Below are positions 34 through 17,731 of a DNA stretch of 35,105 bases, piece by piece. The DNA comes from a virus, in IMG/VR virus record IMGVR_UViG_3300037234_000433, positions 1 through 35,105 of that record, one strand, 5' to 3'. The position numbers were made by a program, and so were the translations under genes. Every line of letters starts with the position of its first letter. The first letter of the stretch is position 1. The notes below the pieces were generated by a model that searched no databases, had not been told where the DNA came from, and saw only the letters and a list, made by a program, of their open reading frames with translations.

Positions 34-322
34 ATCAAGATGGAAAGAGATATGTGACTTATTGGGTGTAACTTTGCCAGTGGAGAAAGATCCTTTGGAA
101 GGAATCAATATTCAGGCAGAGTATGACCTTATTTTTCAGAAAAAGAGCACGCTTTCTGCAAATCAAAGAGATGCAGTTGAATATCGCATGGCAAAAATTA
201 CAGAAAAAATCAGACAACAGGCTCAGGCCGACAAAATACCTGAAGAGAATTTAATAGCTTACATAGCAGAAAAAATAGAGGAGACCATTAAAAATGGCAA
301 AAAATCAGAAATTTGTAATTAA
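26..322 (+). CDS. Hypothetical protein, 98 aa, helical and charged
   Basis: The ATG follows a strong AGGGGG Shine-Dalgarno with a 5-nt gap. The 98-residue product is rich in Lys, Glu and Gln, and its C-terminal half (about 45-95) reads as helical or coiled coil. No family is recognised. The gene overlaps the start of the ParB-like gene by 29 nt, implying translational coupling. By position, two genes before a small-terminase-like gene, it could be a packaging or DNA-handling accessory, but that is inference. Confidence 0.7.
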   Translation: MSKSRWKEICDLLGVTLPVEKDPLEGINIQAEYDLIFQKKSTLSANQRDAVEYRMAKITEKIRQQAQADKIPEENLIAYIAEKIEETIKNGKKSEICN

Positions 323-1013
323 GACTTTTAAGCGTTCTGAGGTTAATCTAGCCGATTACAATCCTCGTCAAATCAAAAACAAGAATAAAGCTAACCTGAG
401 TAAAGCCCTGAAAAAGCATGGATTGGTTACTCCTCTCGTTTTGAACCTCACTACAATGAATTTATGCGGAGGCCATCAGAGAATTCAGGAGATGGATATT
501 CTTGAGGATTACCCCAAAAATGACTATGAGCTTGATTTTTCGTGCATCGAAGTGGATGAGTATGAGGAAAAAGCAATAAATCTCATGCTCAATAATAAAA
601 ACCTTCAGGGTGATTTTAGTGGAGAGCTCCTTAACGCTCTTTCAATGGATGGTTTCGACCTCTCCAAAGATGGATTCTTTCCCGATATTGAGCTCAAGGT
701 AGACTTTGGTATCATTTCAAAGCAGGAACGAGAACAACAAACCGTTGAAGAGAAAGAAATCGATTTAGAAGCCTCTGACGGCATTAAAGAGATGGAGCAG
801 GCCGTTGGATCAGCAAAAGAAACTAAACAGGCTGAGCGTGCAGAAATCAAGGCTGAAAAAGAATCTGGCACCCATAAATCAAATACTGTTGAAGATTATA
901 CTGTAACTCTCATCTTTAACTCAGCAATTGAGAGAAACAAAGTCATGGAGCAGTGTGGCCTCAAGAAGGAGGAAAAGCTCCTCTATTACTCTGATCTTAC
1001 TAATCTTAATTAA
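294..1013 (+). CDS. ParB/Srx-like domain protein
   Basis: The N-terminal about 110 residues match the ParB/Sulfiredoxin fold seen in many phage proteins. An opening strand ends in the motif YNPRQI (compare NPR in ParB), then comes a helix with a GLVTPLVLN stretch, then the box CGGHQRI, which corresponds to the GG-H-R nucleotide-binding motif, and a later region with LMLNNKNLQG. Phage ParB-like proteins of this kind are CTPase, nuclease or modification-linked proteins often placed next to terminase genes. The C-terminal half (about 140-200) is a charged Glu/Lys-rich, probably coiled-coil segment. GAGGAG lies about 10 nt before the ATG. The exact activity cannot be told from sequence. Confidence 0.75.
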   Translation: MAKNQKFVIKTFKRSEVNLADYNPRQIKNKNKANLSKALKKHGLVTPLVLNLTTMNLCGGHQRIQEMDILEDYPKNDYELDFSCIEVDEYEEKAINLMLNNKNLQGDFSGELLNALSMDGFDLSKDGFFPDIELKVDFGIISKQEREQQTVEEKEIDLEASDGIKEMEQAVGSAKETKQAERAEIKAEKESGTHKSNTVEDYTVTLIFNSAIERNKVMEQCGLKKEEKLLYYSDLTNLN

Positions 1014-11486: not shown

Positions 11487-11495
11487 AATAAGAAT

Positions 11496-11576
11496 TTGCA
11501 TTGTGCGAAAAGAACCTGCGCTGTGAACGAGATTAATCACCTCGGGTGTGGGAGCGGTTGATTACCATCAATGTAA
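11496..11576 (+). ncRNA. tRNA-sized structured RNA (degenerate tRNA-like)
   Basis: TTGCATTG (11496-11503) pairs with CAATGTAA (11569-11576), an 8-bp closing stem of acceptor type around 65 nt. GCG (11505-11507) and CGC (11519-11521) around an 11-nt loop resemble a D-arm. CTC...GAG (11541-11554) could be a long variable arm. A T-arm is only weakly formed (GG-TTGATTA-CC). It lies between promoter D and the clearer tRNA at 11582, only 5 nt apart. No anticodon can be assigned. It could instead be an unrelated leader structure. Confidence 0.35.
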
Positions 11577-11581
11577 TTGTA

Positions 11582-11671
11582 TGCGGTGTAGCTCAGTTGG
11601 TAGAGCGTGTGCGTATAGTTGGCTGAAAGGTCGAAGGCACAAGGTCGGGGGTTCAAGTCCCTCCACTGCAT
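11582..11671 (+). tRNA. tRNA with an expanded (24-nt) anticodon loop; identity undetermined
   Basis: Acceptor TGCGGTG (11582-11588) pairs with CACTGCA (11664-11670). The D-arm is canonical (GCTC-AGTTGGTA-GAGC, 11591-11606). A 5-bp anticodon stem, TGTGC/GCACA (11608-11612, 11637-11641), is followed by a 5-nt variable region and a canonical T-arm with loop TTCAAGT (11647-11663). Between the anticodon stem strands there are 24 nt instead of 7, with a small GAAA-capped hairpin inside. No CCA is encoded. Either a short insertion must be removed, or this is a tRNA-derived RNA that does not decode. The protein frame running through it is an artefact. Confidence 0.6.
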
Positions 11672-11693: not shown

Positions 11694-12080
11694 ATGTCAG
11701 AACAAAAAGTAAAGCCTGTTGCAGGATTCATAAGAGTAACAGGTAAAAAAAGAGGCAATATATATAAACTATCTGTTGATAATATATCAGGATTTATATA
11801 TTACGATGATTGCACTGAAATTTATAGCAAGTCAAACAGCGAAAGTATTGTAACTGTCAAAGAGTTAGAGACTGAAATAGATGAAAAGCTAATTGAATCT
11901 TTTAATACTACTATAGATTACTCTCTTATGTTGCCTGCTGTAAAGACTCATACGGTTGAGTGTCATAATTGCAATAGCGTTGGATGGGTTGAATTGTTTG
12001 ATAGCGCGCACGCAAGAGTTGAGGCGTGCAGTGAGTGTAATAGCGAAGGTTCACTGCCTTACACCATTAAGGCTGAATAA
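11694..12080 (+). CDS. Zinc-knuckle hypothetical protein, 128 aa
   Basis: The ATG at 11694 follows AAAAAGGAA and lies just after the tRNA; the longer frame upstream would translate the tRNA T-arm and is rejected. Residues about 89-120 have CHNCNSVGWVELFDSAHARV then ACSECNSEG, that is CxxC-x2-G ... CxxC-x2-G, the spacing of a DnaJ-type zinc knuckle. The N-terminal 80 residues are a strand-rich domain of unknown kind. It is the first protein gene downstream of promoter D. Confidence 0.68.
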   Translation: MSEQKVKPVAGFIRVTGKKRGNIYKLSVDNISGFIYYDDCTEIYSKSNSESIVTVKELETEIDEKLIESFNTTIDYSLMLPAVKTHTVECHNCNSVGWVELFDSAHARVEACSECNSEGSLPYTIKAE

Positions 12081-12101
12081 AAAAAAGAGTGCTCTTAATT
12101 A

Positions 12102-12189
12102 AGTAGGTAAAAGCGATTCATGTACACCTCTAAGCTATGTGCACCAGACATGAGGGAACCGATATCAGACGTGGTATCACCTGCTTTTT
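12102..12189 (+). ncRNA. Structured RNA or leader with terminal T-run (tRNA-like outline)
   Basis: AGTAGGT (12102-12108) pairs with ACCTGCT (12179-12185), followed at once by a T-tract. Directly inside the 3' strand is GATATC/GGTATC (12161-12166, 12173-12178) with a 6-nt loop, and in the middle TCATGT/ACATGA (12118-12123, 12148-12153) around a 24-nt loop. The closing stem with an adjoining hairpin gives an acceptor-plus-T-arm outline, but the loop lacks TTC. The T-tract and the nearby start at 12215 also suit an attenuator or riboswitch-like leader. It also contains the repeat TGTACACC / TGTGCACC (12121, 12138). Confidence 0.42.
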
Positions 12190-12214
12190 AACTTTAACAA
12201 AAGGAAACGAAACA

Positions 12215-13078: not shown

Positions 13079-13525
13079 ATGGTACGTGAATTAAGTAAAT
13101 ATGTAAATGTAAGCAATGATAAATTTGTTGACGCTTGCCCAATGTCAAAAGAACAGTTTGCAAGATACAAGGATTTACCGCAAAAGGTTGGTGAGGTTGA
13201 CAATTCGGCAGGATTCCATTGTGTTCATGGTGACGGTAAAGATGAATGGATTGGCGTTAACTCTTTTGAAGAGCTTTATTCTCCTCTACAAAATTGCCAC
13301 ATTAAGACAACATCTTTAAACTTTGGAACAGCTTTCGAGTTGGCTAAAAAAGGCTTATCAATGCGATTGCCTGCATGGTCTCCTGACGTGCTGATTAGAG
13401 TTCAGTTTCCCGATGATGGCAGTAAAATGACTGCTCCTTACCTATACGTGGCTAGTAGATTCGGTATGGTTCCTTGGAAAGAGACTAACATTGAGTTATT
13501 TTCAGAAGAGTGGGAGATTGTATAA
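13079..13525 (+). CDS. DUF2829 (Tad2-like) anti-Thoeris candidate with an extra N-terminal domain
   Basis: Residues 80-148 fit DUF2829, the family of Thoeris anti-defence protein Tad2: LNFGTAFELAKKGLSMRLPAW (compare MNFGEALEALKxGKKVAR.GW), a central strand, APYLYVASRFGMVPW and the terminal ELFSEEWEIV (compare LLAEDWEVV). Characterised Tad2 proteins bind and sequester the cyclic ADP-ribose isomer made by Thoeris TIR proteins, so that the effector is not triggered. Residues 1-75 carry a separate small domain, ending GDGKDEWIGVNSFEELYSPL, resembling another common phage accessory element. AAAAAGGAAAAAT precedes the ATG. Activity is inferred from family membership only. Confidence 0.72.
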   Translation: MVRELSKYVNVSNDKFVDACPMSKEQFARYKDLPQKVGEVDNSAGFHCVHGDGKDEWIGVNSFEELYSPLQNCHIKTTSLNFGTAFELAKKGLSMRLPAWSPDVLIRVQFPDDGSKMTAPYLYVASRFGMVPWKETNIELFSEEWEIV

Positions 13526-13835: not shown

Positions 13836-13954
13836 TGCACTGTGACGGAATATCTATCTATTAGGCAGACGTTGAAAGTCGAAAGGCAAAGCTAGACGCA
13901 GATGATAGTAGCGGAGGACTAGCGTAAATGTGGGTTCAAACCCCACCAGTGCAT
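13836..13954 (+). tRNA. tRNA-like locus with canonical acceptor and T-arm, enlarged interior
   Basis: Acceptor TGCACTG (13836-13842) pairs with CAGTGCA (13947-13953), and the T-arm is perfect (GTGGG-TTCAAAC-CCCAC, 13930-13946). ACG/CGT around GAAT...GGCAGA resembles a class II (Leu/Ser) D-arm with an enlarged loop. GCTAG/CTAGC forms a 5-bp stem with a 23-nt loop. A segment TGAAAGTCGAAAGGCA resembles TGAAAGGTCGAAGGCA in the tRNA at 11582. At 119 nt it is too long for a normal tRNA, and no anticodon can be assigned. It may be an interrupted or decayed tRNA or a tRNA-mimicking RNA. Confidence 0.45.
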
Positions 13955-13974: not shown

Positions 13975-14445
13975 GTGAATAAGAAAGAGTTTGAAGAAAC
14001 GGCAATAGTAAAAGGCATGAAGATAAGTTGTGAAAATCAGAATGGTTTCATACGTGCTCTTTGTGAGGAGTTATTGCCTGATGAAGAGATAAAGCATGCT
14101 CATGTAGAATATGAGATAGCGTCAATATGTTACCCTGATAGATGCTTTATGATAGAAAATCATGGTGGTGTTTACTTTGAAAATTGTGAGTTCGTAAAGG
14201 ATGATGCATACTATAAGTTTAATGGTGATCCATGGCCTAGACCGTTATCTAGCAATGTAAAAGTTATAAACCAGAGTATAAAAGCAATGTCATTAGCAGA
14301 TGGTTGTGCGTATGAAGCTCCTGAAGATGATCAGTTGCTTATCAATGCTGATGGTAGTAATCTCCACAAAGAAGGTGATTTTTCAAAAGCAGTTAAGCAG
14401 TTGAAAAAATTAGGTATTAATATGTTTGAAAAGGTGTGGCAATGA
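13975..14445 (+). CDS. Hypothetical protein, 156 aa
   Basis: GTG 13975 follows the GCGAG cassette; the longer frame would translate the tRNA-like T-arm. The protein has several cysteines not arranged in knuckles, a middle strand region (CFMIENHGGVYFENCEFV) and a C-terminal helix with SKAVKQLKKLGINMFEKVW. Function unknown. It overlaps the next ATG (ATGA). Confidence 0.62.
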   Translation: MNKKEFEETAIVKGMKISCENQNGFIRALCEELLPDEEIKHAHVEYEIASICYPDRCFMIENHGGVYFENCEFVKDDAYYKFNGDPWPRPLSSNVKVINQSIKAMSLADGCAYEAPEDDQLLINADGSNLHKEGDFSKAVKQLKKLGINMFEKVWQ

Positions 14446-15815: not shown

Positions 15816-16124
15816 ATGAAAAACCTTATTATATTACTACTGCTCTCTGTAATGTCGTGCTTTGCACTGGCGATGCAGAACAGCGGTGGAAAGATAGAGG
15901 TTGGTCAATATATAAAGCTTTTGGAACAACAAGATTTCTCATCTGTTCAGGAAACAGTTGAGTATAACGTTGTTGCTCAAGACTCTATTGCCCAACACAA
16001 GACGATTAACTTTATAGCCTATAGGTATAAGCCTCTGACGATTAGCTTAAGCTTAATCTCTTATAGGATATCTATGGCTGACTCGCTATATCTAGCGCCT
16101 TTCGAGGTTGGTTGGCAATCTTAA
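15816..16124 (+). CDS. Exported small protein, moron-like, 102 aa
   Basis: ATG 5 nt after TCGAGG. The N-terminus is a classic signal peptide: KN, a hydrophobic core LIILLLLSVMSCF, and ALA-M as a signal peptidase I site at about 19/20. MSC could alternatively serve as a poor lipobox. The mature part (about 80 residues) is polar with amphipathic strands and one further hydrophobic stretch near LTISLSLISY. It stands alone between promoter-like block E and a strong terminator, just before the late packaging genes, the typical arrangement of a moron. A surface or superinfection-exclusion role is plausible but not shown. Confidence 0.65.
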   Translation: MKNLIILLLLSVMSCFALAMQNSGGKIEVGQYIKLLEQQDFSSVQETVEYNVVAQDSIAQHKTINFIAYRYKPLTISLSLISYRISMADSLYLAPFEVGWQS

Positions 16125-16146
16125 TAAATAAATCAATTTAAACTCG

Positions 16147-16182
16147 AAGGCCACACTTTACATAAGTGTGGCCTTTTTTATT
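16147..16182 (+). terminator. Strong intrinsic terminator
   Basis: AAGGCCACACTT (16147-16158) pairs perfectly with AAGTGTGGCCTT (16164-16175) across the loop TACAT, followed by a T-rich tract. A 12-bp GC-containing stem with a U-run is a textbook rho-independent terminator. It closes the 15816 transcription unit and insulates the structural genes from the accessory island. Confidence 0.92.
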
Positions 16183-16225
16183 GTAATTCGATGTTAATTC
16201 AAACAAAATTATGTAACTTATATTT

Positions 16226-17731
16226 ATGACACCAACCTATGACCTAAAATACATACCGAAACTTGAGTTCTTGTATACCTTATTTGGGTTTGCAGGCACC
16301 GTAGATAGACCTCAAACGGATCTTACCTATGGTTATGATCATTTGATACTTAAAGGCGGTAGAGGTGGCGGTAAGTCGGAATCGGTAGCGCAGGCATTAA
16401 TATTAATATCAAGAGTAGTCAGGACAAGGATTCTGTGTACTCGTGAGATTCAAAACTCAATGGCAGATTCGGTGTTTATGATGCTCACTGAATGGATCGA
16501 TACTATGGGTATGCGGTCTGAGTTCCATATCACAAAAACACAGATAATAAATAAAGCTACAGGAACAGACTTCATTTTTATGGGAATGGAATACGCTGTT
16601 CGTTCTGACTCATTGAAGTCACTGAAAGGCGTTGGCCTTGTATGGTATGAGGAAGCTCAAACAGCTACTACAGCATCTCTTGAAAAGCTTGATCCGACCA
16701 TACGTATTAATGGGCGTAAAATAATCTACACGATGAATCCGAGGACGGACAACGATGCCGTTCTCACTTTCTTTAAAGGTAAAAAGAAGGTTAAATGGGT
16801 TGATATCAATTATCCTGATAATCCTTTTTGTCCTGATGTACTACTCGATCAGGCCGAAGAGATGAAAGTTCTCGATTACGATCGATGGCTACATATTTGG
16901 ATGGGTCAACCAATACCTGAAGATTCAAGCAGAATTATATTACCTTACTCATGGCTTACTCAGATCGTTAACCTACATGAGCGGTTGCCTGATGAGAATA
17001 AAATCGTTGAGATCGATCAGTATAAGCTCTATGGTGGGTTTGACGTTGCGGACGGTACCACTGAAGCGCATGATAAAAACGCTCTTACTACTCGCAGGAG
17101 TTCAGTTATAGAAAGCTGTGAAGAGTGGCAGATAGATCAGGTCTACAAATCAGTTAAGAGAATTAATAAAAGACATAGCGAGCTTGGGTTCAATACTCTT
17201 TATTATGATGCAACAGCCATAGGTGTTGCCGCAAAGAGTGAATTTGCACGTATCGAGGAGCAGGTAGGAAAGCTACCTTATGAGGTTTATGCCTTCCAAG
17301 GAGCTAAGAGTCCATACGGTAAGAATGTAGTCTATAGTGGTGAAGGTGTTAACAAAATCACCAATGGAGCGCAGTTTTTAAATGCTAAATCCCAAGGATG
17401 GTGGAATTTAAGACTGAGATTAGAAAATTCAATGAGATTGATTAGAGGAGAAAAAATAGACCGCAACGACTACTATTTGAGTTTTTCCCCCGAAATAGAT
17501 GATTTAGATAGTATCTTTTTAGAAATGTCACAGGCTACATTTGAAGAAGACAACTCTGGTAAGATAAAAGTTGACAAAGATCCTGCGTTAAAAGAGATTG
17601 AAGTAGATGGGAAAAAGAAATTCCGCAAGAGTCCAAACAAAGCGGATTCAATAAAGTATGCGTTTGCAAGCGATCTGCATAATGGTATTCAAGCTCACAG
17701 ACCAAAAGTAAAAAAGGCCGAGGTTTTTTAA
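16226..17731 (+). CDS. Terminase large subunit
   Basis: A 501-aa ATPase/nuclease that pumps DNA into the prohead and cuts it. Walker A is LKGGRGGGKSES (about 42-53, Lys50). Walker B with the catalytic acid is GVGLVWYEEAQ (about 135-145). TMNPRTDND (about 170) is the usual coupling motif. The RNase H-like nuclease half has FDVADG and LYYDATAIG as acidic motifs and NKADSIKYAFA near the C-terminus as the last one. The pattern is closest to PBSX-type large terminases. No Shine-Dalgarno precedes the ATG (TATATTT directly upstream), so weak or leaderless initiation is possible. The stop overlaps the portal ATG as TAATG. Confidence 0.93.
   Translation: MTPTYDLKYIPKLEFLYTLFGFAGTVDRPQTDLTYGYDHLILKGGRGGGKSESVAQALILISRVVRTRILCTREIQNSMADSVFMMLTEWIDTMGMRSEFHITKTQIINKATGTDFIFMGMEYAVRSDSLKSLKGVGLVWYEEAQTATTASLEKLDPTIRINGRKIIYTMNPRTDNDAVLTFFKGKKKVKWVDINYPDNPFCPDVLLDQAEEMKVLDYDRWLHIWMGQPIPEDSSRIILPYSWLTQIVNLHERLPDENKIVEIDQYKLYGGFDVADGTTEAHDKNALTTRRSSVIESCEEWQIDQVYKSVKRINKRHSELGFNTLYYDATAIGVAAKSEFARIEEQVGKLPYEVYAFQGAKSPYGKNVVYSGEGVNKITNGAQFLNAKSQGWWNLRLRLENSMRLIRGEKIDRNDYYLSFSPEIDDLDSIFLEMSQATFEEDNSGKIKVDKDPALKEIEVDGKKKFRKSPNKADSIKYAFASDLHNGIQAHRPKVKKAEVF

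What the first reader, a model, noticed from the sequence alone, without database searches (positions are those of the whole stretch)
11582..11671. tRNA with a 24-nt anticodon loop: possible mini-intron or non-decoding tRNA mimic
Acceptor, D-arm, 5-bp anticodon stem (TGTGC/GCACA), variable region and T-arm are all in place, but 24 nt instead of 7 lie in the anticodon loop, including a GAAA-capped hairpin. Known bacterial or phage tRNA introns are large group I/II introns; a 17-nt insertion would be unusual. It could be spliced, tolerated, or part of a tRNA-derived regulatory or decoy RNA, for instance against anticodon nucleases.
Basis: partly seen in the sequence, partly recalled or inferred. 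Interest (0 to 1): 0.68.

Follow-up and report, generated by a model that had tools for sequence, protein, structure and literature searches.

The report
Phage tRNA-like RNA without an anticodon
This phage carries an otherwise intact transfer-RNA shape in which the seven-base reading loop is replaced by 24 bases with no usable anticodon; similar loop-replaced tRNAs turn up in many unrelated phages but almost never in the bacterial genomes sampled, so it looks like a used phage RNA design rather than a broken gene.

Summary
Window 11582-11671 (+) is a tRNA scaffold (Rfam tRNA 53.4 bits, E 6e-9) with all stems paired, core bases U8 and C48 present, and 24 nt in the anticodon loop. No way of cutting out 17 nt leaves a plausible anticodon. 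No near relative of this phage was found, so the element cannot be tested in its own lineage. Among 92 distinct scaffolds U8 (91), C48 (88) and acceptor pairing are kept, while loop positions 32 and 33 carry no information; archaeal intron-tRNAs found with the same pattern keep C32, U33 and A38. In related members the insert is often better conserved than the acceptor stem. Longer inserts form another group: decoding tRNAs with a structured, covarying insert in the anticodon stem. Introns in phage tRNAs were reported in Lak phages and called enigmatic. Best reading: a non-decoding tRNA-scaffolded RNA whose loop is the working part. Function and partner are not shown. A short intron, decay and a nuclease decoy remain possible.

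The parts
11582..11671 (+). tRNA-like RNA with a 24-nt anticodon loop (element E2)
   Evidence: Rfam RF00005 53.4 bits, E 6.2e-9; ARAGORN with introns
11608..11612 (+). 5' strand of anticodon stem TGTGC
   Evidence: pairs fully with 11637-11641
11613..11636 (+). 24-nt loop GTATAGTTGGCTGAAAGGTCGAAG replacing the 7-nt anticodon loop; weak hairpin TTGGCT-GAAA-GGTCGA inside
11637..11641 (+). 3' strand of anticodon stem GCACA
13836..13954 (+). second tRNA-like element (E3): acceptor TGCACTG/CAGTGCA, T arm GTGGG-TTCAAAC-CCCAC, possible arm GCTAG/CTAGC with a 23-nt loop, D domain replaced
   Evidence: 0 in 60 simulated genomes. The GCTAG/CTAGC arm rests on the predicted fold and reading by eye only
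11694..12080 (+). ORF (128 aa) starting 23 nt after E2; weak similarity to PHROG 2855 and DUF7222, function unknown
13975..14445 (+). ORF whose likely GTG start lies 21 nt after E3 (listed from 13930)
   Evidence: no Pfam match

Best explanation
E2 is a non-decoding tRNA-scaffolded RNA. The phage keeps the acceptor, D arm, T arm and tertiary core of a tRNA and replaces the anticodon loop with a sequence of its own. Most likely working (inferred): it is transcribed in the leader of the downstream gene, cut out by the host's tRNA maturation enzymes (RNase P at the acceptor, 3' processing nucleases), stays stable because of the L-shape, and shows its 24-nt loop to a partner (a protein or an RNA, not identified), for example a host defence or regulatory factor. 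It does not decode. Shown: the intact scaffold, the absence of a plausible anticodon, and the recurrence of this architecture in phages under constraint on the core and, in some related groups, on the insert. Inferred: processing, stability, partner and benefit.
For: Intact scaffold with an Rfam score far above cut-off. No 17-nt excision gives a plausible anticodon. A second tRNA-like element lies in the same genome at the same place relative to the next gene. In 92 distinct scaffolds, positions not fixed by the search are conserved (U8 91/92, C48 88/92, acceptor pairs of all types), while positions 32/33 carry 0.02 and 0.00 bits; 54 archaeal intron-tRNAs found with the same pattern show 1.73 and 1.51 bits and A38 in all. 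In several homologous pairs the insert is more conserved than the acceptor stem: 96 vs 64%, 94 vs 71%, 82 vs 36%, 74 vs 21%. Absent from 397 and 394 other genomes of two bacterial phyla.
Against: No relative carries this insert, so constraint on this particular loop is not shown. The E2 loop is not a member of the one insert family modelled. U33 is present in every reading of the loop, which a spliced tRNA would also show; 16 of 93 scaffolds of this group have some decoding-like reading, E2 among them by the bare test of U33 and a purine at 37. In some closely related pairs the acceptor is more conserved than the insert (L027/L037/L099, L049/L094, L056/L104). No transcript data.
Confidence: 0.5

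Rival explanations
1. A decoding tRNA with a 17-nt intron that is removed, as proposed for Lak phage tRNAs.
For: Phage tRNA introns were reported in Lak phages (PMC6784885). In the viral set with longer inserts, 46 of 63 restore a full anticodon stem across the insert (5.9 in shuffles), 33 of these with U33 and 44 with a purine at 37, so intron-like inserts in decoding phage tRNAs look real. ARAGORN calls E2 Tyr(ata) with a 17-nt intron.
Against: No excision of 17 nt leaves a plausible anticodon: CGA or AGA (Ser) without a long variable arm, or AUA. Position 32 would be G and position 38 G or U in every reading, where archaeal intron-tRNAs keep C32 and A38. The conserved motifs of the longer inserts (ACAGCAA, GUUAYC) are absent, and the insert is in the loop, not in the stem.
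Confidence: 0.2
2. A decayed tRNA or recombination remnant without function.
For: No encoded CCA, U73, unusual U1:A72 pair; no homologue with this insert; no relatives to show selection.
Against: All stems and the tertiary core bases are intact; decay would not spare every helix and hit only the loop. The same pattern recurs in at least dozens of unrelated viral contigs with the core conserved.
Confidence: 0.13
3. A decoy or inhibitor for a host tRNA-targeting defence such as an anticodon nuclease.
For: Phage tRNAs do counter tRNA-cleaving defences (PMC10264068; PMC11555353). A Tad2-like anti-Thoeris gene lies next to E3.
Against: Known anticodon nucleases read the anticodon loop, and this loop holds no anticodon; no direct test.
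Confidence: 0.09
4. A processing signal: the tRNA shape lets RNase P and 3' nucleases cut the transcript and set the 5' end of the downstream mRNA; the loop itself is irrelevant.
For: E2 ends 23 nt and E3 21 nt before the next start codon.
Against: Inserts are better conserved than acceptor stems in several related pairs; across the viral set the distance to the next gene varies widely.
Confidence: 0.08

Closest known systems
tRNA introns of Lak megaphages (Devoto et al. 2019, PMC6784885)
   Same: Phage tRNA genes with short intervening sequences of unknown origin, called enigmatic by the authors; several per genome
   Different: The Lak tRNAs are assigned an anticodon (e.g. Tyr GTA, Thr TGT); E2 has no plausible anticodon.
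Archaeal and eukaryotic tRNA introns removed by the splicing endonuclease
   Same: Short insert in the anticodon loop
   Different: Archaeal examples found with the same search keep C32, U33 and A38; the viral set does not and E2 keeps only U33. The window is a tailed-phage contig
Phage tRNAs with mutated anticodon loops that evade nucleases (PMC10264068)
   Same: Phage tRNA, change limited to the anticodon loop
   Different: There base changes in a working 7-nt loop; here the loop is replaced
Engineered tRNA scaffold for recombinant RNA (e.g. PMC3753655)
   Same: RNA of choice placed in the anticodon arm of an otherwise intact tRNA, for stability (from general knowledge and the search result)
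   Different: That is a laboratory design; here natural
tmRNA and the stable RNAs of the T4 tRNA cluster
   Same: tRNA-like end domain, non-decoding (T4 RNAs from general knowledge)
   Different: No tmRNA match over E2; E3 matches only the T arm (9.4 bits)

Membership tests
Decoding tRNA (Rfam RF00005) | Acceptor, D and T arms with core bases | tested here: met
   53.4 bits, all stems paired
Decoding tRNA (Rfam RF00005) | 7-nt loop with an anticodon | tested here: not met
   24-nt loop
Intron-bearing decoding tRNA | Removal of the insert restores U33, a plausible anticodon and a purine at 37 | tested here: inconclusive
   U33 and a purine at 37 can be restored, but the anticodons are CGA, AGA or AUA, none plausible on this scaffold
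Intron-bearing decoding tRNA | The insert is spliced out | not testable with these tools
   needs RNA from infected cells
Archaeal-type tRNA intron | C32, U33 and A38 kept around the intron | tested here: not met
   G32 and G or U at 38 in all readings, U33 only is met; archaeal control 54/54 A38
Group I or II intron | Large catalytic core | tested here: not met
   17 extra nt; no Rfam match
Conserved long-insert family F7 in phage tRNAs | Insert in the 5' strand of the anticodon stem, hairpin then ACAGCAA | tested here: not met
   E2 has an unbroken stem and no such motif
Insert family F1 in phage tRNA scaffolds | Match to a covariance model of the F1 insert | tested here: not met
   no match at E2 or E3
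tRNA-scaffolded phage RNAs without anticodon (group described here) | Intact acceptor/D/T and core, 5-bp anticodon stem, long loop without anticodon | tested here: met
tmRNA | Tag reading frame and pseudoknots with a tRNA-like domain | tested here: not met
   no match at gathering score; T arm only for E3

The most novel reading that the evidence does not exclude
Phages use the tRNA body as a standard carrier for many different RNA modules: the tRNA core is kept and the decoding loop is swapped for inserts that evolve as separate functional families, with E2 and E3 as two such RNAs in one small myovirus.
Probability: 0.42. Interest if true: 0.82.

Novelty: new variant of a known kind. Interest (0 to 1): 0.6.

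Why it matters
If many phage 'tRNAs' are carriers for other RNA modules, or hold a new kind of short intron, then counts of phage tRNAs and ideas about codon compensation need revision, and a set of small RNAs of unknown targets becomes testable. The conserved inserts found on the way (F1, F7, F8) give concrete candidates, F1 and F7 with covariation support.

Tried and rejected
Canonical 37/38 intron: gives AUA, rejected as implausible. Group I/II intron: too short, no Rfam match. Antisense to the phage's own genes: best duplex -20.5 kcal/mol upstream of ORF 8885, 5 of 200 shuffles as good over start regions, but genome-wide not better than shuffles. Membership in F1: covariance model gives no match at E2 or E3. 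Exact searches for the E2 core in viral contigs: none. Relatives through terminase, capsid protein and the downstream protein: only a 4-kb contig with a 59% identical capsid protein, which does not reach the locus. Phage isolates: no match for the region or for 35 inserts of other contigs. Common neighbour gene: none; no PHROG or Pfam family in more than 3 of 107 flanking proteins. A sigma-70 promoter just upstream, read by eye: the scan finds no more sites than shuffles. Extended anticodon arm with a normal loop at its tip: only one 7-nt apical loop among 60 inserts. Other intergenic stretches (11494-11578, 12100-12190) fold no better than shuffles.

Full report
OBSERVATION. The window is an IMG/VR virus record of 35,105 bases with terminase, portal, capsid, tail sheath, tape measure and baseplate genes, i.e. 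a contractile-tailed phage. At 11582-11671 (+) Rfam finds a tRNA with 53.4 bits, E 6.2e-9, aligned over the whole model with 24 nt in place of the 7-nt anticodon loop. ARAGORN finds nothing by default and 'Tyr(ata), 17-nt intron' when introns are allowed. Acceptor, D, anticodon and T stems are fully paired, and U8, A14, G18, G19, A21, G26 and C48 are present. The GAAA hairpin exists in the predicted fold but is weak.

A SECOND ELEMENT. A scan for a paired acceptor plus a T arm finds exactly two places in the genome: E2 and 13836-13953; 60 simulated genomes with the same dinucleotide statistics gave none. E3 has a perfect 7-bp acceptor and a canonical T arm. Between them lie 87 nt with no canonical D arm; a 5-bp arm GCTAG/CTAGC with a 23-nt loop is possible but was read by eye and from the minimum-energy fold, so I hold it as tentative. 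E2 ends 23 nt and E3 21 nt before the next start codon. A Tad2-like (anti-Thoeris) gene lies at 13079-13525.

CAN IT DECODE? Taking any contiguous 17 nt out of the loop leaves one of GUCGAAG, GUAGAAG, GUAUAAG, GUAUAGG, GUAUAGU. The anticodons would be CGA or AGA (Ser, but the scaffold has the short variable region of class I) or AUA (A34, Tyr). All keep U33, so an intron is not formally excluded, but none of these is a plausible tRNA. For E3 no excision of its tentative loop gives U33.

RELATIVES. No close relative of this phage was found: the locus has no match among phage isolates, the downstream protein has none in viral contigs, terminase relatives are about 31-34% identical, and the nearest capsid relative is a 4-kb contig at 59%. 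The E2 insert itself was not found elsewhere. So E2 cannot be judged within its own lineage, and what follows is about the architecture.

THE ARCHITECTURE IN VIRUSES. The pattern fixes the D and T motifs, so their conservation is not evidence. Unfixed positions are conserved: among 92 distinct scaffolds (kept for an acceptor of at least 6 pairs, of the 7 possible, and a full T stem) U8 is kept in 91, C48 in 88, and the acceptor pairs occur as all pair types; 60 of the 92 have an anticodon stem with at least 4 of 5 pairs (32 of them 5 of 5). In contrast, loop positions 32 and 33 carry 0.02 and 0.00 bits. The same pattern in genome contigs returned mostly archaea, whose intron-tRNAs keep C32, U33 and A38 (1.73, 1.51, 2.0 bits). 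This control shows that the method sees a decoding tRNA when there is one. In 398 and 395 genomes of two bacterial phyla only the centre genomes, chosen because they matched, had a hit.

THE INSERT IS CONSTRAINED IN SOME FAMILIES. Among homologous pairs the insert is often better conserved than the acceptor stem (96 vs 64%, 94 vs 71%, 82 vs 36%, 74 vs 21%), which is the opposite of decay. It is not universal: several closely related pairs show the reverse (L027/L037/L099, L049/L094, L056/L104). One family (F1, 13 members) has an invariant core UCA-N-GG..AAGG-NCC and a covarying hairpin pair. E2 does not belong to it.

A DIFFERENT GROUP WITH LONGER INSERTS. By a stricter joint test 36 of 63 are decoding-like (1.3 in shuffles), against 16 of 93 in the group of E2 (1.5 in shuffles), some of those being ordinary tRNAs caught by the pattern. 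The long insert lies mostly in the 5' strand of the anticodon stem after nucleotide 28 or 29. A family (F7) has a 7-bp covarying hairpin followed by ACAGCAA, with several copies in different tRNAs of one phage. These look like a new family of short tRNA introns or inserts. The boundary between the two groups rests on my search windows and was found after looking, so it should be retested on an independent sample.

LITERATURE. Introns in phage tRNAs were reported in Lak megaphages and called enigmatic (PMC6784885). I found no report of anticodon-less phage tRNAs in the open-access library; most subscription papers are not covered, so absence of a report is weak evidence.

VERDICT. The feature is real. 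E2 most likely is a non-decoding tRNA-scaffolded RNA (0.5); a removed intron (0.2), decay (0.13), a nuclease decoy (0.09) and a processing signal (0.08) remain. What the loop does is not shown.

Noticed in passing
L255, L258, L261, L263, L273, L277, L281, L284, L285, L289, L290, L294, L310, L314, L342, L349, L358, L362 and others: Family F7: 35-65-nt insert in the anticodon stem (after nt 28/29) of decoding phage tRNAs of many identities; 7-bp covarying hairpin followed by ACAGCAA; several copies per phage. Not covered by Rfam.
   Followed up: partly
L250, L256, L267, L276, L308, L331, L343, L360: Family F8: another insert in decoding phage tRNAs that ends in GUUAUC or GUUACUU directly before the 3' exon.
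   Followed up: partly
L023, L049, L058, L061, L066, L071, L086, L090, L094, L096, L105, L113, L118: Family F1: anticodon-less tRNA scaffold, often inside phage tRNA clusters, with invariant core UCA-N-GG..AAGG-NCC; a pseudoknot between CUUC and GAAG is possible. L346 and L361 carry the core with an extra hairpin.
   Followed up: partly
L303 4623-4908: Permuted tmRNA (RF04321, 56.8 bits) in a viral contig with many tRNAs and an F7 insert.
   Followed up: no
L261 14095-14337: HEARO RNA (RF02033) in a viral contig with F7 tRNAs.
   Followed up: no
L178 6577-6673, L196 7481-7577, L201 2590-2686: Chryseobacterium chromosomes: tRNA with a 32-nt insert containing GTTCCTAT, a unit that recurs just downstream; conserved in three species.
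   Followed up: partly
L125 2130-2208 and 2497-2575: Tenacibaculum phage pT24 (isolate): two nearly identical 'tRNA-Undet' genes with an extended anticodon arm GTTCG-CGGGTATATTACCCT-CGAA.
   Followed up: partly
L158 4272: A bacterial tRNA 'insert' that looks like sequencing adapter (GACGCTCTTCCGATCT), probably an assembly artefact in a public genome.
   Followed up: no
window 13079-13525: Tad2-like (anti-Thoeris) domain protein next to E3.
   Followed up: no
window 294-1013: ParB-like / PHROG 9353 protein near the start of the contig.
   Followed up: no
window 16124-16226: Hairpin GGCCACACTT/AAGTGTGGCC followed by a run of T between two ORFs, looks like a terminator before the terminase gene.
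   Followed up: no
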